Shown piece by piece: positions 9,014-27,850 of a stretch of 64,000 nucleotides of DNA. Under the pieces are notes generated by a model, which was not told the DNA's origin, did no database searches, and saw only the letters and a program-made list of their open reading frames with translations. The translations under genes and the position numbers were made by a program. Each line of letters begins with the position of its first letter. The first letter of the stretch is position 1. The stretch comes from Acetobacteraceae bacterium (lineage in GTDB: Bacteria; Pseudomonadota; Alphaproteobacteria; Acetobacterales; Acetobacteraceae): the NCBI GenBank assembly GCA_947475245.1, contig CANJLW010000001.1, forward strand, positions 162,025 through 226,024, given 5' to 3'.

Positions 9014-10083
9014 CGATCGAACGCGCGCTTGATCCGCGCCCAATCGTCCAGGGCATCTTCCTGACCGGGGGTGATCGGGATGACGAACTGGCTCCACCCG
9101 GCATCGCGCATGGCTTCGATCCGTTGCGTCAATTCCTGTTCCGTCGCGGTAAAGGTCGTGCGGCGGATCAGTTCGGCGTTGACGAAGGGCCGTTCCTCCG
9201 GCTTGACGAAGACGAAATGACCGCGATGGTTCATCAGATAGCGCGCGTCGGCCGGTTCGAAGTTGCGCGCGACCTCGTTATAACCGGCGATGCTTTCGGC
9301 GACAGTGGGCGGGACTTCCGTCGTGTTCTTCCAGCCTTCCATATCGAGGTCGGCGGCGCGGTGCAGGAGCACGGCGGCGCGCGGTCCGGCCTGCGCCATG
9401 GCGCGCGGGCTGTCGGCGGGTTCGCCGGGTTGCAGCACGCAGCCGCAGACCCAGGCCGTGGTGTAGAGATCCGCTTCCGAACGACCCGCCGCCGCCCAGT
9501 CTTTCTTCATGCCCTCCAACGCGCCCAAGGCGCCGGGCACGTCGCTGATGAAGGTCTTCCAGGCCGCGCCGAGCTTTGCGACCAGGGTCTGTGATTTTGG
9601 TCCGTAGGCGGAGACGTGCAGCTTGATCGGGTCTTCGATATTGAACAGGCCGATTTCCGGGTTCAGGAAGCGGATTTTCTTCTTCTTGCCCTCGATCAGC
9701 GTCTCCAGTGTCTCACCGGCCAACAGCCCGTAGACGACACGGATGTATTCTTCCATGTCCGCCAGCTTCATACCGCTCAGCCCCATCGCGCGACGGGCGG
9801 AGAACCCGGTGCCGACGCCGAAGTCCAGGCGTCCGGGTGCCATGGCGTTCAGGGTCGCGAAGGCATTGGCGGTGACGGGGGCGATGCGATTGGACGGCAC
9901 CAGAACGCCGGTGCCCAGGCGGATGCGGCTGGTCTTCATCGCCGCGCCGGCCATCGCGATGAACACGTCCGCCGTGATCATCTGCGTGTCGTAGAACCAT
10001 GCGTGCGTGAAGCCGAGTTCTTCCGCGCGTTGCGCGACTTTCCAGGAATCATGGCTGCTGGCGATGCCGATGCCGAAATCCAT
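9010..10083 (-). CDS. LLM-class (luciferase-like) flavin-dependent oxidoreductase
   Basis: This 357-residue TIM-barrel protein belongs to the bacterial luciferase/F420-reductase superfamily. Its family features are [41 protein letters not shown], the [17 protein letters not shown] loop and [13 protein letters not shown]. Such enzymes use FMNH2 or reduced F420 to oxidise or reduce small organics. The coupled MFS gene downstream may handle the same compound. The substrate cannot be read from sequence. Confidence 0.87.
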
Positions 10084-19248: not shown

Positions 19249-20427
19249 TCAGGTTCGGATCAGCCGTCGCATCGGTTCGACGTCGCGGCTGTTCGGGAAA
19301 ACGGCGTCGAGCGAGCCGATCGGCAGGCGCAGATGCGCGCTCAACAACCCCTTGGCGACGGAGCGTAAATCGCCGGTTGGCATCAGGTCGCGGTTTTCCA
19401 GCAGGGCATCCGGCCCCAGGCCGGGCCATTGTCCGCGCACCACGCCGCCTTCAACCGCGCCGCCGAGGATAAAGGCCACCGTGGCGGTGCCGTGATCGGT
19501 GCCTCTTGTTCCGTTCGCGCGCGCCGTGCGGCCGAATTCCGTCATCACCAGCACGCAGCTTTGCTTCCAGACCGAACCCAAGGCGGCCTTCAGCGCCGCC
19601 ATGCCGGTGTCGAGTTGGCGTAACGGCCCGGCCAGCCGGTTGACCTGTTGGGCATGTGTGTCCCATCCGCCCAGTTCCAACGCGGCGATGCGGGGACCAT
19701 CCTCGGCGCGCAGCATCTCTCCGGCGGCGGTGGCCAAGGCGGGGAAGGCGAAGCGGTCTTTCGGTTCCTCGCTGCCCGCCAGGATGGCGGCTGTGAAGCC
19801 GCGCCCGCGCAGACCTTCGGCGACGGCCGGGCCCGTTACGCGATCCGCTGCGTTCAGTTCGGCGATCGTTTGATACAGATGCGCGGGCGGAGACGCGAAA
19901 CCGCGCGGTGCCCAGTTATCAACCGCGTTCGACCCGCGCAGCAGCAATGGCAGGGCAACGCCCACCGCCAGCGCGTCGCCGCGTCCGCGCCTGTCCGGCA
20001 TCGCGGCGACGGCTCTGCCAAGCCAGCCGCTGGACATGCGGTGATCGGTGCCGCTTTCCAGGCAGTCCTGGGCCACGAAATGGCTGCGCGCGCGGTAGGG
20101 ACCGGCGACGGCGTGCACGATGGCCATTTCCCCGGCGGCATACAGCGCGTGCAGGTTGGGCAAGGCTGGGTGCAGTCCGAAGAAGCCGCCGAGGTCGAGC
20201 AGCCCATCCGGCTCGCCGATCGGCGGCGCCATCAATTCGCGGCGCAGCCCCGCCAAAGCGGGATCGCCATAGGGCGCGACGGCGGCCAGGCCGTCGAGCG
20301 CGCCGCGCAGGTTGACCACGACGAAGCGTCGCTCGGTCGGCGCGGCGGCCAAGGCGAGCGCGTTGGGTCCCGCGCTCAGCAGGCCGGCCAATCCCAGAAC
20401 AGCGCCGCGACGGGTCAATGCTGGCAT
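19249..20427 (-). CDS. DUF1501 exported protein
   Basis: This 392-residue protein starts with a twin-Arg and hydrophobic segment (TRRGAVLGLAGLLSAG), suggesting Tat-type export. The DUF1501 signature TEFGRTARANGTRGTDHG lies in the C-terminal third and resembles metal-site sequences of the alkaline phosphatase/sulfatase fold. Its ATG shares one base with the stop of the upstream DUF1800 gene (TAATG). The DUF1800-DUF1501 pairing is widespread, but the biochemical role is not established. Confidence 0.88.
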   Translation of the reverse strand: MPALTRRGAVLGLAGLLSAGPNALALAAAPTERRFVVVNLRGALDGLAAVAPYGDPALAGLRRELMAPPIGEPDGLLDLGGFFGLHPALPNLHALYAAGEMAIVHAVAGPYRARSHFVAQDCLESGTDHRMSSGWLGRAVAAMPDRRGRGDALAVGVALPLLLRGSNAVDNWAPRGFASPPAHLYQTIAELNAADRVTGPAVAEGLRGRGFTAAILAGSEEPKDRFAFPALATAAGEMLRAEDGPRIAALELGGWDTHAQQVNRLAGPLRQLDTGMAALKAALGSVWKQSCVLVMTEFGRTARANGTRGTDHGTATVAFILGGAVEGGVVRGQWPGLGPDALLENRDLMPTGDLRSVAKGLLSAHLRLPIGSLDAVFPNSRDVEPMRRLIRT

Positions 20428-21716
20428 TATCGCCTCTGAAATTCGGGGGAGGTCAGCAGCAGGGTCAGGCCGTCGCGGCGCGATCCCGCTCGTTTGACGG
20501 CCATCAGGGTTTCGTCGCGCAGTAAAGGGCCAAGCGCCGCTTCGGCGAGTTCGGCGGGGTCGCGCGCGCCGATGCGGGCGGCGAAGGCGTGCGCCCAGTC
20601 GATGCGTCGCATCATCGCCTCGGGTCCGGCCCAGTCATCCGCACGGTCGGGCCATCCGTTCGGCGCGGGCGCGGTCCAAAGCGGCTGACCCAGACCGGCG
20701 AGGATGGCGGTCAGATTGGGGGGCGGATCGCCGAGGGGCGCGAGCAGGCGGACGCAGGCAACGACGTAATCGAGCGGGGTGCGCAGCTTGCCATGCGATT
20801 GCCATGCGGCGTCGAGCCCGATCAGTTCCAGCGAGGCCGCCCCGAGATCGCCCCCGGTGTCGCGCAGGACGGCTTCGATACGCCGAACCGTCTCGGCCGG
20901 GGGATCGTCGGCGATGAAATGCCGAGCGAGTTTGGTGGCGAGGGCGCGGTGGGTCGCGGGATGGTCGGCCAGGAAGCGCAGGGCCTGCACGCCGCCGGCC
21001 TCATCCGCCGCCAAGCGCTGCCCCATGACGATGTGCTCGCCGGGTTGATGGGCGCGGGGGCGATAGCGAAATCCGGGCGATGCCGCGTTCATGTCGATGG
21101 ACCAGCCGGTCAGCACGCGCGCGAAGCTTGTCACATCGGTCTGAGTGTATTGGGAGGCGGGCGTGACGGTGTGCAGTTCCAGGCATTCGCGGGCGAGGTT
21201 TTCGTTCAGTCCGCGCGCGCCGCGATCGGCCGCGGGGCTGTCCGGGCCGACGGAGGCGGCGTTGTCCAGATAGAGCAGCATCGCGGGGTGACGCGTCACC
21301 GCCAGCACCATATCGGCGAATCGGCCGGTGACATGCGGACGAATGGCTTCCTGCACGAAGGCACCGGCCAGTCCGGCCACCTGACCGCGTCGCAACGAGA
21401 CGGTGAAGTGGTTGGTCCAGAACCAGACCAGGCGTTCGCGAAACGGTGCAACGGTGGAAACGGCGTGGTCGAGCAAGGTCTGGGCGGAGGCGCGGTAGAT
21501 CGCGCGTGCCTTGGATTCGCCGGGTTGCGGCCCGGCCTCGCGGTCCTGTCGGATGGCGAGCAGCCCGTCGGCGGCCGACGGCACGGGTAACGCGAGGGCG
21601 GGATCGGGTTGCGTGATCTGAGCGCGCGCCCAGGCGGCGGCATCCAAGGGAACCGGTTCGGCGGGGCGCCGTCCGAGTCCGAAGCGCGCGAGGGCATGAA
21701 ATGCGGCTGCTTGCAT
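20427..21716 (-). CDS. DUF1800 protein
   Basis: This 429-residue protein has the DUF1800 hallmarks ARFGLGRRPAE near the N-terminus, LVWFWTNHFTVS, MLLYLDNAASVG, and GLNENLARECLELHTV. It also has FARVLTGWSID and a late PNGWPDRADDW segment. No clear signal peptide is visible, unlike many relatives. It is the first gene of a two-gene unit with DUF1501. Function is unknown; members of the pair are often exported together. Confidence 0.88.
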   Translation of the reverse strand: MQAAAFHALARFGLGRRPAEPVPLDAAAWARAQITQPDPALALPVPSAADGLLAIRQDREAGPQPGESKARAIYRASAQTLLDHAVSTVAPFRERLVWFWTNHFTVSLRRGQVAGLAGAFVQEAIRPHVTGRFADMVLAVTRHPAMLLYLDNAASVGPDSPAADRGARGLNENLARECLELHTVTPASQYTQTDVTSFARVLTGWSIDMNAASPGFRYRPRAHQPGEHIVMGQRLAADEAGGVQALRFLADHPATHRALATKLARHFIADDPPAETVRRIEAVLRDTGGDLGAASLELIGLDAAWQSHGKLRTPLDYVVACVRLLAPLGDPPPNLTAILAGLGQPLWTAPAPNGWPDRADDWAGPEAMMRRIDWAHAFAARIGARDPAELAEAALGPLLRDETLMAVKRAGSRRDGLTLLLTSPEFQRR

Positions 21717-21979: not shown

Positions 21980-24067
21980 GTGACAGAGTCGCCGCTCGCC
22001 CGGATTCGCAATATCGGCATTACCGCGCATATCGATGCCGGAAAGACCACGACGACCGAGCGCATCCTGTATTACACGGGCGTGTCGCACAAGATTGGCG
22101 AGGTCCACGACGGCAACACCACGACCGACTATATGGACCAGGAGCGTGAGCGCGGCATCACCATCACCTCCGCCGCCGTGACCTGCGAATGGGCCGACCA
22201 TCGCATCAATATCATCGACACCCCGGGGCATATCGACTTCAACATCGAGGTCAATCGCAGCCTGCGCGTGCTCGACGGCGCGATCTTCATCATCGAGGGC
22301 GTGGCCGGCGTGCAGCCGCAGTCCGAGACCAACTGGCGCCTGGCCGATCGCTACAACGTGCCGCGCATCATCTTCATCAATAAGCTCGACCGCACCGGCG
22401 CGGACTTCTACCGCGCCTTCGACACGTTGAAGGAAAAGCTCGATATCATCGCGCTGCCCTTGCAGCTGCCGATCGGCGAGGAAGACAAGTTCCTCGGCAT
22501 CATCGACCTCGTCGAAATGAAGGCGATCATCTGGGAAGGCGGCGAACTCGGCGCGAAGTATCACGACGAACCGATCCCGGCCGAACTCGCCGACAAGGCC
22601 GCCGAATATCGACAATTGCTGCTCGACACCGCGCTGTCGGTCGATACCGAAGGCATGGAAGAGTATTTCGAGAACGGTGACGTGTCCGTCGCCACCCTGA
22701 AGCGCGCCATCAAGCGCGGCACGATCGACGGCGACTTCCGCCCCGTGCTGTGTGGCACCGCGTTCAAGAACAAGGGCGTGCAGCCGCTGCTCGACGCCGT
22801 CATCGACTACCTGCCGTCGCCGATCGACGTGCCGGGCATCGCGGTCGCCCTGGACGAAGGCGTCGACGAAGCGCTGCACCCGGATCGCCGCCGCATCAAG
22901 GCCGACGTGTCCGCGCCGTTCTCCGGCCTCGCGTTCAAGATCATCAACGACAAGTACGGCACGCTGACCTTCGTGCGGGTCTATTCCGGCACGCTGAAGA
23001 CCGGCGACATGGTGATGAACACCACCAAGGACCACCGTGAGCGGATCGGCCGCATGTTCCAGATGCACGCCGACAAGCGGGCGGAAATCAAGGAAGTGCA
23101 CGCCGGCGACATCGCGGCCTTCGTGGGCCTGAAGGACACCGGCACCGGCGACACCCTGGCATCGTCCGACGATCCGGTCGTGCTGGAACGCATGGCCTTC
23201 CCGGTCCCCGTCATCGACATCTCCGTCGAGCCGCGCACCAAGGAAGCCGTCGAGAAGATGACCCTTGGCCTGCAGAAGCTGGCCGGCGAAGATCCCTCGC
23301 TGCGCCTGAAGACCGATCAGGAAACCGGCCAGACCATTCTGTCGGGCATGGGCGAACTGCATCTGGAAATCATCATCGACCGGCTGCGTCGCGAATACGG
23401 CGTCGATTGCAACATCGGCGCGCCGCAGGTGGCCTATCGTGAAACGATTTCCAAGGCGCACACCGAAACCTATACCCACAAGAAGCAGTCGGGCGGTTCC
23501 GGCCAGTACGCGGAAGTGAAGATCGTCTTCGAACCGCAGGAACGGAACCTGGGCGTCCTGTTCGAAAACAAGGTCGTCGGCGGCTCCGTCCCCAAGGAAT
23601 ACATCCCGGCCGTCGAAAAGGGCATTCGCGTTCAGGCCGACACCGGCGTGCTCGCGGGCTTCCCGACGGTGGACTTCAAATACACCCTGGTCGACGGCAA
23701 GTACCACGACGTCGACTCCTCGGCGCTGGCCTTCGAAATCGCCGCCAAGGCCTGCTTCCGCGAAGGCATGAAGAAAGCCAGCCCGATCATCCTCGAACCG
23801 ATCATGGACGTGGAAATCACCACGCCGCAGGATCACGTGGGCGACGTGGTGGGCGATCTCAACCGCCGCCGCGGCATGATCCAGAACCAGGAAAGCTCCG
23901 GCTCCACCATCCTGGTCCGCGCCCAGGTGCCGCTGAAGGAAATGTTTGGTTACATTTCGCACCTGCGCAGCATGACGAAGGGACGCGCGTCCTTCACCAT
24001 GCAGTTCCATCACTACGATCCGGTGCCGCGTAACATCGCCGAGGAGATCATGGCGAAAAGCGCCTGA
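21980..24067 (+). CDS. fusA: Translation elongation factor G (stand-alone, possibly a second copy)
   Basis: EF-G is the GTPase that moves tRNA and mRNA through the ribosome. The 695-residue length and all five domains fit. G1 is [10 protein letters not shown] at 16-25, the switch-I region is [10 protein letters not shown]3 is DTPGH, and G4 is NKLD where NKMD is commoner. Domain IV is seen in [14 protein letters not shown]. The start is a GTG with a GGAGG site 6-10 bases upstream. It has no rpsL, rpsG or tuf neighbours. Segments such as [21 protein letters not shown] differ from the usual str-operon protein, so it may be a paralogue. Confidence 0.9.
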
Positions 24068-24099
24068 TCCCAAGCCGAACAGACGCCTGACCTACCGCG

Positions 24100-24131
24100 C
24101 GACGCGGGCGATCCCATCGCCCGCGTCGTTT
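24100..24131 (+). terminator. Intrinsic terminator of fusA
   Basis: A perfect GC-rich stem (GACGCGGGCGAT / ATCGCCCGCGTC, loop CCC, extendable by one C-G pair) is followed by GTTTGCATTT. It begins 33 bases after the fusA stop, the expected position and orientation. Confidence 0.85.
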
Positions 24132-24219
24132 GCATTTCCGACATCAAATTCCTTTCACGCGCGCCGAACGAAACATGCTAACTCCCCTGACATCGAGAGT
24201 GCTGGGGAGAGCGGGATCG

Positions 24220-24582
24220 ATGCTGCGCCTGCGTACCGATCAGATCATGACCCTTTCAGCCGCCTCGCTCGCTCCGCGTGTGCAGGTCCTGTTGCTCGCG
24301 GCTTTTGGGCCCGTCGCGCTGACACTCGATCGGGCCTTTGTAGTGGCCGCCATCCGGCGTGCCGTTGCCGCCGGCATGGCCACCGAACAGCAGGTCGGTC
24401 GTTACGTCATGTTGGCCCTGGTCGTGCGACCGGATTTCGAAACCAATCCCAACACCGCCTGGGCACATCCCGTCGTGACCGACCGCCGTATGCCCCCCGA
24501 ACGCAAGCTCAGTCGGCTGTATGCCCTCGCGCGCCGTCATGGTCACACCGTGGGCACGGTCCAGTCAGACCGGGCCGCCTGA
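24220..24582 (+). CDS. Small helical protein resembling type VI-neighbourhood hypothetical proteins
   Basis: This 120-residue protein starts at the ATG preceded by GGGGAGAG; frames beginning at 24130 would start inside the fusA terminator. From memory, its layout matches a family of about 120-150 residues often encoded beside type VI secretion or PAAR genes. That layout is an opening like LRLRTDQIMTLS, a middle AIRRAVAAGMATEQQVGRYV, then RPDFETNPNTAWA and ILxD-like VVTDRRM, and a final RKLSRLY. No other type VI gene is seen in the window. It is 15 bases upstream of the giant helical protein, so the two are probably one operon. Confidence 0.6.
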   Translation: MLRLRTDQIMTLSAASLAPRVQVLLLAAFGPVALTLDRAFVVAAIRRAVAAGMATEQQVGRYVMLALVVRPDFETNPNTAWAHPVVTDRRMPPERKLSRLYALARRHGHTVGTVQSDRAA

Positions 24583-24597
24583 CCCGAGGAGAGCACA

Positions 24598-26523
24598 GTG
24601 CCCGCCGATTTCGTCGACGAAGCCGCCCAAGGGGCGCGAGATGCCGCTCAGAACGCGGCGGACGCGGCGCAGAATGCCGCGGATGCCGCTTCGAATGCCG
24701 CCGATCAGGCCGGGCAGGCCGCCGCTCAGGCCGGACAAGCCGCCGGGCAGGCGACGCAGGGCTTTAAGCAACAATCGGAAGAGGCGGCGAAGCAGGTCGG
24801 CGATACCGCGAACAAGGTCGCCGATACCGTCGGCAAGGAAGCCAACAACGCGGTCGATCAGGCGCAGAGCGCTTTGGACGATGCCGCGAAACAGGCCGAC
24901 GACGCGATCAAGGGCGCGACCGGACAGGCCAAGGACGCCATCGCCGACGTCAAGAACCAGGCCGACGGCTATGCCGATCAGGCGAACGACGCGATTACCC
25001 AGGTGCAGGAAGCCCCCGGCAAGGCGGTGCAGGAACTGAAGGACAAGCAACAGGAACTGCTCAACAAGATCGACGATGTCGGCAAGGACGTGAACCAGCA
25101 GATCCAGGACGTCACCGATCAGGCCAATCAGAAGATCAACGAGGTCAACGACGCCGTCCAGAACGCCGAAAAGGAACTGGAAAACAAGCTTCAGGAAGCC
25201 GTCGATACCGCGCAGAACACCGTCCGCGATGCCGCGAACAAAGCCCGCGAAGCCGCGCAGGCAGCCCGCGATGCCGCCAAGGACGCCGCCGAAAAGGCCC
25301 GCGCGCTGGCCCAACAGGCCGCCGATGAGGCAACGAAGGCGATCGCCGATGCCGCGGCCAAGGTCGCCGAGGAAGCCGATCGCGCCGCCGCCCTTGCCGA
25401 CGAAGCCGCCGAGGCCGCCGAACGCGCCGCCGCCATGGCGGAACAAGCCGTCGACGATGCCGAAAACGCGCTCGACGACCAACTCGATGCCGTCAACAAC
25501 AAGGTCAACGACCTGCTGAGCAAGCTGCCGGCGAATTTGCCGGCGATGCCGTGCCCGATGACGCAGATGATCGCCGACAGCCTGACCCCGGCGCTCGATC
25601 TGCCCGACAATCCGCTGGGCGATGCGATCAACCAGGTCAAGGCGGCGGCACAGGCGGCCAAGGCGGCGATCAAGGCCGCGCTCGAAGCAGCCCTCGCCGC
25701 CGCCCGCGCTTTGGCCGAACAGTTGCGGGCACTGGCGCAGCAGATCAAGGATCAGGCCGCCGCCCTGGCCGCCAAGGCGCTGGAATTAGTGCAAAAGGGC
25801 CTGGAACAGGCAAACGCGCTGATCGACAAGGCGATTGAGCAACTCGACGCCGCCCTCGCCGCGGCCAACGAGATGGCCGACAAGGCGGAACAGGCCGCGA
25901 TGGACGCGATCGAAAAGGGACGCGAAGCCGCCCAACCCGCCGTCGACGCCGCCCGCGCCGCCGCCGGCAAGGTTCAGGAACTCGCCAACAAGGCGTCGGA
26001 AACGCTGAACGAAGCCTCCCAAAAGGTGCAGGGTATCGTGACCGACGCGACGGAAAAGGTTCACGAACTGGCGGAAAAAGCGACACAACCGATCATCGAC
26101 GCGGCCGAGAAAGCCAAGGACGCCATCCAACCCACGCTCGATCAGGCGGCGGAAAAAGCCCACGACGCCGTGAACACGGTCAAGGACAAGGTCGACGAGG
26201 TCGCCGACAAAGGCACGGAAATGGTGCAAAAGGCCGAGGACACCGCGACCGAAGCCGCCGAGAAGGCCAAGGACGCCGCCCAGCAAGGCGTCGATGCCGC
26301 CCGTGACGCCGCGCAGACCGCCGCGCAAACCGCGAACGAAGCCGCTCAATCCGCGCAGGAAGCCGCCAAAGCCGCCGCCGACGGGGCCAACAGCGCCGCC
26401 GATGCCGCGCTCGATGCCGCGCAGCAAGGCGCGCAGGCAGCCCAGGAAGCCGCCCAACAGGCATCTCAGGCCGCGAAGGAAGCCGGGCAGGCGGCACAGA
26501 ACGCGGCAAACGCCGTCCCCTGA
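24598..26523 (+). CDS. 641-residue Ala-rich LEA/apolipoprotein-like helical protein
   Basis: I do not recognise a named family. The chain is overwhelmingly Ala with Gln, Lys, Glu, Asp and Asn, in 7- and 11-residue periods (AADAAQN-type at both ends, KAKDAAQQGVDAARDAAQ-type inside). This is typical of LEA group 3 and apolipoprotein-like amphipathic helices. There is no signal peptide or membrane span. The pattern breaks once, at about 302-343, with a Pro-rich segment containing LPAMPCPMTQM and the only Cys (319). The two ends are Gln/Ala-rich and the flanking arms more charged. The GTG start has a GAGGAGA site. Possible roles are a stress protectant, a filament or scaffold, or secreted cargo. 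Confidence 0.75.
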   Translation: MPADFVDEAAQGARDAAQNAADAAQNAADAASNAADQAGQAAAQAGQAAGQATQGFKQQSEEAAKQVGDTANKVADTVGKEANNAVDQAQSALDDAAKQADDAIKGATGQAKDAIADVKNQADGYADQANDAITQVQEAPGKAVQELKDKQQELLNKIDDVGKDVNQQIQDVTDQANQKINEVNDAVQNAEKELENKLQEAVDTAQNTVRDAANKAREAAQAARDAAKDAAEKARALAQQAADEATKAIADAAAKVAEEADRAAALADEAAEAAERAAAMAEQAVDDAENALDDQLDAVNNKVNDLLSKLPANLPAMPCPMTQMIADSLTPALDLPDNPLGDAINQVKAAAQAAKAAIKAALEAALAAARALAEQLRALAQQIKDQAAALAAKALELVQKGLEQANALIDKAIEQLDAALAAANEMADKAEQAAMDAIEKGREAAQPAVDAARAAAGKVQELANKASETLNEASQKVQGIVTDATEKVHELAEKATQPIIDAAEKAKDAIQPTLDQAAEKAHDAVNTVKDKVDEVADKGTEMVQKAEDTATEAAEKAKDAAQQGVDAARDAAQTAAQTANEAAQSAQEAAKAAADGANSAADAALDAAQQGAQAAQEAAQQASQAAKEAGQAAQNAANAVP

Positions 26524-26529
26524 ACGGCT

Positions 26530-26545
26530 TGGCACGCGTCATGCT
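26530..26545 (+). promoter_or_regulatory. Sigma-54-type promoter candidate
   Basis: TGGCACG and ATGCT place the invariant GG and GC exactly ten bases apart, as in -24/-12 promoters, with one mismatch in the -12 element (ATGC for TTGC). It lies 37 bases upstream of the start of the polyamine-type binding-protein gene. Nitrogen-related control would suit an amine importer. Confidence 0.45.
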
Positions 26546-26581
26546 TAGCCCCGATGCAACGGATGCTCGGGAGCCTATCCA

Positions 26582-27850
26582 ATGACAAGCAAGCGCGTCA
26601 CTCGTCGTACACTGCTCGCCGGCGCGGGCGTCGCATTGGGATCGGGGGCCGTCACCGGCTTTCCCACGATCTGGGCGCAGAACATCAAGAACGTCACCCT
26701 GCGCCAGTTCGGCACCGGCGTGTCGAACCTGAATGCCGTCGCCGATCAGGTCAAAAAGGACCTCGGCTTTACGCTCTCGATGACCGCGCTCGACTCCGAC
26801 GCCGTCACGCAAAAAGCCGTCACCCAGCCGAAGTCCTACGATGTCGCTGATATCGAATACTGGATCTGCAAGAAGGTCTTCCCGACCGGCACGATGCAGC
26901 CGATGGATGTCAAGCGGATCAAGAATTTCGACAAGATCGTGCCGATTTTCACGTCCGGACGCCTGACGCCGTCGTCGTCCATCGCCCAGGGCACCGCGCC
27001 GCATACGGTCGGTTTTGTCGAGAAGCAGGACTCCAAAACCTTCTCGACGAAACAAACCGGATGGATGACCCTCATCCCCACCATCTACAACGCCGACACG
27101 CTCGGCATTCGACCCGATCTCGTCGGGCGCAAAATCACCCATTGGAAAGATCTGGTCGATCCCGCCTTCAAGGGCAAAGCGTCGATCCTGAACATTCCCT
27201 CCATCGGCATCATGGACGCCGCGATGGTCATGGAATCCCTCGGCACGCTGAAATACGCCGACAAGGGAAACATGACGAAGGCCGAGATCGACAAAACCAT
27301 CGCGTTTCTGATCGAAGCCAAAAAGGCCGGACAATTCCGCGCCTTCTGGAAAAGCTTCGACGAAAGCGTCAATCTGATGGCCTCGGGGGAGGTGATCATC
27401 CAGTCGATGTGGTCCCCGGCCGTTGCCGCGGTCCGCTCCAAGGGCATCCCCTGCGTATATCAACCCCTGGCCGAAGGCTACCGCGCCTGGGGCGGCGGGT
27501 TGGGACTGGCGAGGCATCTGACCGGTTTGCAGCTTGATGCCGCCTACGAATACATCAATTGGTACCTGTCCGGCTGGGTCGGGGCCTATCTCAACCGCCA
27601 AGGCTATTACAGCGCGGTACTGGAAACCGCGAAGCAGCATATGAGCGCGGATGAATGGGGCTTCTGGATCGAGGGTAAGCCCGCCAAGGCCGATATTCTG
27701 AGCCCGGATGGCAAGGTGATGGAAAAGGCCGGCGCCGTGCGCGACGGCGGATCGTTCGAACAGCGCATGGGCGCGGTCGCCTGCTGGAATTCCGTGATGA
27801 CCGAGGACCGTTATATGGTCCAAAAATGGAACGAATTCATCGCGGCATGA
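26582..27850 (+). CDS. Polyamine/iron-type ABC binding protein (family 1), Tat signal
   Basis: This 422-residue protein starts with a twin-arginine signal (TRRTLLAGAGVALGSG). It continues as an extracellular solute-binding protein of the PotD/PotF or family 1 type, with TIYNADTLGIRPDL, ITHWKDLVDPAFKGKA and GWVGAYLNRQGYYSAV. Relatives bind spermidine, putrescine and other small charged solutes. The ATG follows CGGGAG. Its stop overlaps the permease start as ATGA, so expression is coupled. The exact ligand is unknown. Confidence 0.88.
   Translation: MTSKRVTRRTLLAGAGVALGSGAVTGFPTIWAQNIKNVTLRQFGTGVSNLNAVADQVKKDLGFTLSMTALDSDAVTQKAVTQPKSYDVADIEYWICKKVFPTGTMQPMDVKRIKNFDKIVPIFTSGRLTPSSSIAQGTAPHTVGFVEKQDSKTFSTKQTGWMTLIPTIYNADTLGIRPDLVGRKITHWKDLVDPAFKGKASILNIPSIGIMDAAMVMESLGTLKYADKGNMTKAEIDKTIAFLIEAKKAGQFRAFWKSFDESVNLMASGEVIIQSMWSPAVAAVRSKGIPCVYQPLAEGYRAWGGGLGLARHLTGLQLDAAYEYINWYLSGWVGAYLNRQGYYSAVLETAKQHMSADEWGFWIEGKPAKADILSPDGKVMEKAGAVRDGGSFEQRMGAVACWNSVMTEDRYMVQKWNEFIAA

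What the first reader, a model, noticed from the sequence alone, without database searches (positions are those of the whole stretch)
24220..26523. Two-gene locus: type VI-neighbourhood-like small protein plus a giant LEA-like helical protein
Seen: a 120-residue protein and, 15 bases later, a 641-residue Ala/Gln/Lys/Glu chain with 7/11-residue periods, broken only by a Pro-rich centre with the sole Cys. A terminator precedes the pair and a promoter candidate follows it. Known: LEA group 3 and apolipoprotein-like repeats form amphipathic helices in stress protection or membrane binding. From memory, the small protein resembles ones found near type VI genes. Inference: the pair may be a protectant, a filament system or an exported cargo with its adaptor. 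I know of no described system with this pairing.
Basis: partly seen in the sequence, partly recalled or inferred. Interest (0 to 1): 0.72.

Follow-up and report, generated by a model that had tools for sequence, protein, structure and literature searches.

The report
Secretion-adaptor fragment with giant helical cargo
A small gene related to the cargo-gripping half of type VI secretion adaptors sits directly before a gene for an unusual 641-residue, alanine-rich helical protein, so the pair looks like a carrier and an odd new kind of cargo for a bacterial injection machine, though nothing has been tested at the bench.

Summary
The two genes exist as described. The 120-residue protein (P0001) looks like a stand-alone copy of the helical C-terminal lobe of DUF4123 (Tap/TEC) type VI secretion adaptors: a profile built without it finds it at E = 9.4e-10 among 2829 open frames, and 9 of 18 other family members are fused to DUF4123. 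Fourteen of 18 have DUF4123, PAAR or VgrG fused or in the fetched stretch. Of 11 downstream proteins run against Pfam, 7 carry an effector-type domain. The window's genome has a type VI cluster on another contig.

The 641-residue partner (P0002) is therefore best read as the lobe's cargo. Its hydrophobic stripe keeps phase at 3.628 residues over the whole chain (power 129.7; next best of 316 genes 10.3). It is not LEA-like (11/3), matches no family above cut-off and was not found in 58 related genomes. Its only cysteine, in a Pro-rich hinge, resembles a short Cys motif near the start of most cargos; that fit alone is weak. No immunity gene follows, and no DUF4123, PAAR or VgrG lies in the window. 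How the cargo acts is inference.

Verdict: new variant of a known kind.

The parts
24099..24129 (+). intrinsic-terminator-like hairpin (14 pairs) after fusA, separating it from the pair
24220..24582 (+). stand-alone adaptor lobe (P0001, 120 aa), homologous to the domain that follows DUF4123 in type VI adaptors
   Evidence: profile built without it gives E = 9.4e-10
24598..26523 (+). putative cargo (P0002, 641 aa): Ala-rich amphipathic helices with one phase-coherent hydrophobic stripe of period 3.628 residues
25528..25620 (+). Pro-rich hinge of P0002 (residues 311-341) with the sole Cys (residue 319, codon 25552-25554), context LPAMPCPMTQM, resembling the single-Cys motif of five other cargos of the family

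Best explanation
[quoted passage not shown] P0001 is the cargo-binding C-terminal lobe of a DUF4123 adaptor, encoded on its own without the VgrG-binding N-terminal lobe. It binds its neighbour P0002, probably at the exposed Cys/Pro hinge, keeps it competent for export, and hands it to the VgrG-PAAR tip of the machine on contig C35, perhaps together with a separate DUF4123 protein. P0002 folds into four long amphipathic helices arranged about the central hinge, probably a hairpin roughly 45 nm long. Once delivered, its unbroken Ala/Val/Leu stripe would pack helices together or lie on a membrane. Shown: homology of P0001, gene order, periodicity, presence of a type VI cluster. Inferred: binding, hinge recognition, export, hairpin, membrane action.
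For: Profile without P0001 finds it at E = 9.4e-10 among 2829 six-frame ORFs; in the own-genome pieces scanned nothing else reached 0.01. 9 of 18 other family ORFs are fused to DUF4123 (Pfam agrees in all 7 run); 14 of 18 have DUF4123, PAAR or VgrG fused or in the fetched stretch. In all 18 loci a downstream ORF starts between 31 bases before and 22 bases after the end of the family gene (taken as the longest ORF starting from 61 before to 150 after). Of 11 of these run against Pfam, 7 carry an effector-type domain above cut-off: Ntox15 x3, Tox-REase-5 x2, Tle1-like, lysozyme. Own genome: VgrG, PAAR, VipB and TssA on C35. Papers: Tap3's C-terminal domain (residues 199-302) is a five-helix bundle that touches its effector, and Tap6's C-terminal lobe was proposed to recognise its effector (PMC12909789, passages); similar for Tla1 (PMC13133936, passages). 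P0002's Cys context fits the single-Cys motif of 5 other cargos.
Against: No VgrG, PAAR or DUF4123 was found in the window; no DUF4123 on contig C35 or in the 12 kb before the window; the rest of the genome was not searched for it. P0002 has no match above cut-off in Pfam or NCBIfam and only coil-type matches in PHROGs and PADLOC, and no immunity gene follows: 58 bases after its stop an ABC transporter gene starts. P0002 is unlike every other cargo in the set (31% Ala; the next intact one is 17%). Its Cys is at residue 319, not near the N-terminus, and its motif arises in 4.6% of shuffles. The relatives L009 and L046 have none of the three markers in the fetched stretch. No solved structure matched the family by sequence, so the tie to the Tap3 lobe is indirect. 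The two genes may be neighbours by chance.
Confidence: 0.68

Rival explanations
1. P0002 is an intracellular protectant or surfactant (LEA- or apolipoprotein-like), unrelated to secretion; P0001 is its dedicated chaperone, recruited from an adaptor lobe.
For: Ala/Gln/Asp/Lys/Glu-rich amphipathic helix with net negative charge; Pfam's best hit is the apolipoprotein A1/A4/E profile at 49.2 bits, below its cut-off; no immunity gene; no toxin domain.
Against: Period 3.628, not 11/3: power at 11/3 is 0.2 against 107.5. No LEA family among the Pfam matches. The proteins after P0001-type genes are often toxins (7 of 11 tested). Not found in 58 relatives, odd for a general protectant.
Confidence: 0.15
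2. P0002 is a structural rod: a coiled-coil stalk or filament former that is displayed or exported and has no toxic part of its own, like the stalk of Streptomyces umbrella toxin.
For: Foldseek's top solved structure for the P0002 model is chain A of the Umb1 umbrella particle, E = 9.4e-8, the only one under 0.001. Four long helices with breaks roughly symmetric about the hinge. The Val/Ile/Leu and Ala profiles are mirror-like about the centre (r = 0.39 and 0.50; 4 and 6 of 299 shifts as good).
Against: TM-score is only 0.22 and the model comes from one sequence (pLDDT 70.8), so any long Ala-rich coil might match; phmmer against solved structures lists only a three-helix bundle (4tql, E = 1.1e-5). 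A 3.628 stripe is straighter than the 3.5 of a left-handed coiled coil. The Asp/Glu mirror correlation is negative (-0.23), Gln/Asn and Lys/Arg are low (0.14, 0.15).
Confidence: 0.2
3. The pair is a chance neighbourhood or a decaying remnant: a leftover adaptor lobe beside a fast-changing repeat gene with no shared function.
For: P0002 not found in 58 other genomes; none of the 27 same-genus fusA loci with 1.5 kb of downstream flank in view shows the pair; P0001 lacks DUF4123; one family match in G1082 holds an in-frame stop.
Against: The 15-base spacing, good start sites and host-like codon use, and the phase-coherent stripe (16 blocks, R = 0.938), which decay would destroy; TRF finds only short weak arrays, so recent slippage does not explain it.
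Confidence: 0.1

Closest known systems
DUF4123 type VI adaptors (Tap/TEC; Tap3, Tap6, Tla1)
   Same: P0001 is homologous to the part that follows DUF4123 in 9 family ORFs, and it lies directly upstream of its putative cargo.
   Different: No DUF4123 in P0001; not beside vgrG; cargo without a known toxin domain. Other single-domain and tandem forms without DUF4123 exist.
Stand-alone type VI loading domains (MIX, LysM, PG_binding_1, FIX-like; PMC10673891, abstract and one section read)
   Same: A loading domain that exists both fused and as its own gene.
   Different: A different, unnamed domain, here fused to the adaptor rather than to VgrG or the toxin; no Pfam or NCBIfam model covered it in the members run.
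LEA group 3 and apolipoprotein-type repeats
   Same: Ala-rich amphipathic helices built from 7- and 11-residue steps.
   Different: 3.628-residue period instead of 11/3 (the LEA period is recalled); no family match above cut-off.
UmbC of Streptomyces umbrella toxin particles (PMC11062931, passages read)
   Same: Very long coiled-coil stalk; best Foldseek match (that chain A is UmbC1 is my reading).
   Different: No ALF-type or toxin family among the Pfam matches of P0002, no signal peptide by eye; TM-score 0.22; no sequence match.

Membership tests
DUF4123 type VI adaptor (Tap/TEC) | N-terminal DUF4123 domain | tested here: not met
   No Pfam match in P0001; no DUF4123 in the window or other own-genome pieces searched. 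P0001 is therefore not filed as a DUF4123 adaptor.
DUF4123 type VI adaptor (Tap/TEC) | helical C-terminal lobe | tested here: met
   E = 9.4e-10 with a profile that excludes P0001; mostly helical single-sequence model, mean pLDDT 67. Direct match to the Tap3 structure not obtained.
DUF4123 type VI adaptor (Tap/TEC) | encoded directly upstream of the effector | tested here: inconclusive
   15 bases upstream of P0002, but P0002 is not a proven effector.
DUF4123 type VI adaptor (Tap/TEC) | vgrG or paar in the same locus | tested here: not met
   None found in the window; both are on contig C35.
DUF4123 type VI adaptor (Tap/TEC) | binds effector and VgrG | not testable with these tools
   Needs a pull-down or secretion assay.
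Antibacterial type VI effector | toxin domain and cognate immunity gene | tested here: not met
   No toxin family in P0002; the next gene is a solute-binding protein of an ABC transporter.
LEA group 3 | 11-residue (11/3) repeat and LEA_4 profile | tested here: not met
   Power 0.2 at 11/3 against 107.5 at 3.628; no LEA family among matches up to E = 10, though filters drop most matches above 0.1.
Apolipoprotein A1/A4/E (PF01442) | score above the curated cut-off | tested here: not met
   49.2 bits against 90.
Umbrella toxin UmbC | ALF repeats, Tat signal, C-terminal toxin | tested here: not met
   No such family among the Pfam matches of P0002; no Tat-like N-terminus by eye.
Umbrella toxin UmbC | extended coiled-coil stalk | tested here: inconclusive
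   Foldseek E = 9.4e-8, TM-score 0.22, single-sequence model.

The most novel reading that the evidence does not exclude
The adaptor lobe recognises a short cysteine tag (C-x2/3-C, or a single Cys after [VTA][QM]x) set in a flexible stretch of otherwise unrelated cargos. P0002 is a new class of type VI cargo in which this tag sits at the tip of a giant amphipathic helical hairpin that coats or disrupts the target's membranes rather than acting as an enzyme.
Probability: 0.25. Interest if true: 0.78.

Novelty: new variant of a known kind. Interest (0 to 1): 0.6.

Why it matters
How DUF4123 adaptors recognise unrelated effectors is still largely open: a structure published in 2026 is described by its authors as the first atomic view of it (PMC12909789, passages). 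A lobe that exists alone, in tandem or fused to DUF4123, with a recurrent cysteine motif in the next gene's product, gives a directly testable rule for cargo choice. If P0002 is exported, a non-enzymatic amphipathic rod would be an unusual kind of injected protein.

Tried and rejected
LEA or apolipoprotein membership: rejected on period and score. NCBIfam lipo_Ag473 (40.6 bits, cut-off 100), PHROGs tape-measure and PADLOC ZorA hits of P0002: treated as low-complexity coil matches. BMC-domain hits of P0001 in NCBIfam and PDB (best E 0.041 and 0.11): rejected as weak. In one search, 4 of 59 genomes matched, own included; two of the three others (G002, G019) fell antisense to, or inside, unrelated genes and were dropped. 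Of the 20 matches I followed G007 and G026; G027 holds the query, and of the matches at E > 0.001 only P0001 itself was used. G825 and G898 were not counted: G825 scored E = 0.0039, G898 was not fetched. Fold search with the P0001 model gave nothing (best E 3.3). Profile A5 found no related solved structure (best E 0.37), phmmer with one DUF4123-fused relative none (best E 0.079). Plasmid searches with P0001, P0003 and the P0002 centre gave no match; the viral-contig search found no relative of P0001. The P0002 centre gave, besides itself, two weak matches (E 0.0051 and 0.0063) in 385 genomes of the class, not pursued. Profile A2 rang only in the own genome (1 of 299) and P0003 in none (0 of 299). 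The larger genome searches scored a capped number of candidates per genome (21, 15 in 34, 8 in 38, 12 in 63, 11 in 80), so misses are possible. The mirror-symmetry test is mixed. Errors of mine: the DNA pattern was out of frame, so the single genome-contig scan gave only chance matches (L018-L025; L014), not examined; notebook entry 3 miscounts 16 of 20, entry 4 corrects it to 14 of 18; one search did not orient the minus-strand loci, so repeats it oriented.

Full report
What is there. The window holds a 120-residue ORF (24220-24582) and, 15 bases on, a 641-residue ORF (24598-26523), both on the + strand. They lie 152 bases after fusA, behind a 14-pair terminator-like hairpin, and 58 bases before an ABC transporter gene. 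Codon use looks like that of the two neighbours compared. No sigma-70-like promoter was found in 23900-26800.

The small protein. P0001 has no Pfam, PHROGs or PADLOC match and only weak NCBIfam ones (best E 0.041). Starting from one weak hit in a same-genus genome (G027, E = 0.0015), I found clear relatives in G007 and G026, then in G800, G936 and G1039 (order search; 8 of 395 genomes at E <= 0.01, own included, of which G825 and G898 were not counted), then in G250, G321, G1082, G1079, G252, G278 and G1091 (phylum search; 8 of 388 genomes at E <= 0.001, own included). Two other weak hits were false. As a blind test I built a profile from six relatives without P0001; against 2829 six-frame ORFs of the fetched stretches and the window it finds P0001 at E = 9.4e-10, and in the own-genome pieces scanned nothing else reaches 0.01.

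What the family is. That profile finds 18 ORFs outside the window at E < 0.001; six were its seeds. Nine of the 18 carry DUF4123 in the same frame, N-terminal to the P0001-like domain; Pfam agrees in the seven I ran. Fourteen of 18 have DUF4123, PAAR or VgrG fused or in the fetched stretch; the four without are L009, L046 and two copies in L081. In L083 and L085 DUF4123 lies in an overlapping other frame and was not counted as fused. Published work gives DUF4123 adaptors two lobes: in Tap3 the C-terminal lobe (residues 199-302) is a five-helix bundle that touches the effector, although a loop of the N-terminal lobe supplies about half of the contacts; Tap6's variable C-terminal lobe was proposed to recognise the effector while the N-terminal lobe meets VgrG (PMC12909789, passages; PMC13133936, passages). 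P0001 has the size, predicted helicity and homology of this C-terminal lobe, but no DUF4123. Other members without DUF4123 in the same ORF include G1039 and G1082 (single domain) and the tandem forms in G027, G007 and G026. In G026, G1039 and one G1082 locus a separate DUF4123 gene lies nearby. No related solved structure was found by sequence, so identity with the Tap3 lobe is inferred from fusion and domain borders.

What follows these genes. In all 18 loci an ORF of at least 75 codons starts between 31 bases before and 22 bases after the end of the family gene (one is cut short by a contig end). Eleven of these proteins were run against Pfam; seven carry an effector-type domain above cut-off: Ntox15 three times, Tox-REase-5 twice, Tle1-like once, phage lysozyme once. 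Four do not: P0004, P0010, P0009 and the one in L085. Seven were not run. P0009, and the second downstream genes P0005 and P0011, show HExxH-type metallopeptidase motifs by eye. By position P0002 stands in the place of a cargo.

The genome has the machine. Contig C35 carries VgrG, PAAR, TssA and two VipB matches, in a run of genes that I recognise from memory as further type VI components. VipB occurs in 25 of 33 genomes of the genus, including all four that carry clear family members, which by itself is weak evidence. No DUF4123 was found on C35, in the window or in the 12 kb before it; the rest of the genome was not searched for it.

The large protein. P0002 is 31.0% Ala with 112 acidic and 60 basic side chains. 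Its hydrophobicity repeats every 3.628 residues, with power 107.5. Split into 16 blocks of 40, the phases agree (R = 0.938; 500 random-phase trials with refitting reached at most 0.76), so one stripe runs in register through the chain, hinge included. Among 316 predicted genes, itself included, it scores 129.7 on a normalised scale, the next best 10.3. On the wheel the stripe is Ala plus Val/Ile/Leu/Met/Phe and the opposite face is Asp/Glu with Gln/Asn/Ser/Thr. This equals a mix of 7- and 11-residue steps (autocorrelation peaks at 7, 11, 18 and 29), nearly a straight stripe on a helix, unlike heptad coiled coils (3.5) or LEA-type 11/3 repeats (values recalled). DNA-level tandem repeats are short and weak, so recent slippage does not explain it. 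The single-sequence model has long helices at 2-136, 143-316, 339-502 and 511-639 and a short one at 319-333 in the hinge (mean pLDDT 70.8). Large hydrophobics are rare at both ends and richer in the middle, and the Val/Ile/Leu and Ala profiles are mirror-like, but Gln/Asn, Asp/Glu and Lys/Arg are not; a hairpin is plausible, not shown. The best solved structure by Foldseek is chain A of the Umb1 umbrella toxin particle (E = 9.4e-8, TM-score 0.22), which I take as a resemblance of long coils.

A possible cargo tag. Twelve of the 18 downstream proteins have C-x2-C or C-x3-C in the first 120 residues; five others have a single-Cys motif [VTA][QM]xC; one has neither. In 284 control genes of the same stretches, with all 18 cargos and the family genes left out, the counts are 16 and 5 (17 and 6 of 308, which left out fewer). 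I wrote the second motif after seeing those five, so the numbers describe, they do not test. The five single-Cys cargos all follow family members without DUF4123 in the same ORF; but four other such members (L081 twice, L083, L085) precede C-x2/3-C cargos. P0002's only Cys (AMPC) fits the single-Cys motif in a Pro-rich stretch, but at residue 319 rather than near the start; shuffled P0002 gives the motif in 925 of 20000 cases. On print: a search for 'type VI secretion', 'CxxC' and 'DUF4123' together gave no paper, and one for stand-alone or C-terminal-lobe forms gave two, of which I read parts; nothing outside that library was searched.

Against conservation. P0002 rang in the own genome only (1 of 59 searched at E <= 1e-8). 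Of 29 same-genus fusA loci, 27 show 1.5 kb of downstream flank and two are cut short by contig ends; none has a P0001-family match downstream, and none a stripe like P0002's. The pair is thus seen only here, beside fusA. That is what a private effector insertion would look like, and also what a chance or decaying pair would look like.

Judgement. P0001 as a stand-alone adaptor lobe: about 0.85. P0001-P0002 as an adaptor-cargo pair: about 0.68. What P0002 does after delivery is open; membrane-acting helix and structural rod are the two leading options.

Noticed in passing
L062:5921-8645 and L063:7353-10043: PAAR, DUF4123-lobe fusion and Ntox15 toxin in direct succession, followed by a gene that by position looks like an immunity gene; L063 holds several related copies of that gene. 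Its family was not tested.
   Followed up: partly
L081:4891-5160 and 9358-9600: Two short copies of the lobe (one search match there held an in-frame stop), each before a Cys-motif gene, the second with Tox-REase-5.
   Followed up: no
L083:9154-10042 and L085:8584-9596: The lobe and DUF4123 lie in overlapping different frames; either overlapping genes or frameshifted fusions.
   Followed up: no
L007:9133-9723: A DUF6931 gene (E = 2.1e-47) directly after vgrG in the own type VI cluster; function unknown.
   Followed up: no
window 24068-26581 and L086-L115: What follows fusA varies among genomes of the genus; a few share a neighbour (a similar 106-107-residue ORF in L097, L112, L113, L114; an exonuclease-like gene in L092, L093, L102).
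   Followed up: partly
window 19249-21716: A DUF1501/DUF1800 gene pair on the minus strand upstream of fusA; a similar pair lies near the lobe locus of G027 (L009:17941-19984, by eye).
   Followed up: no
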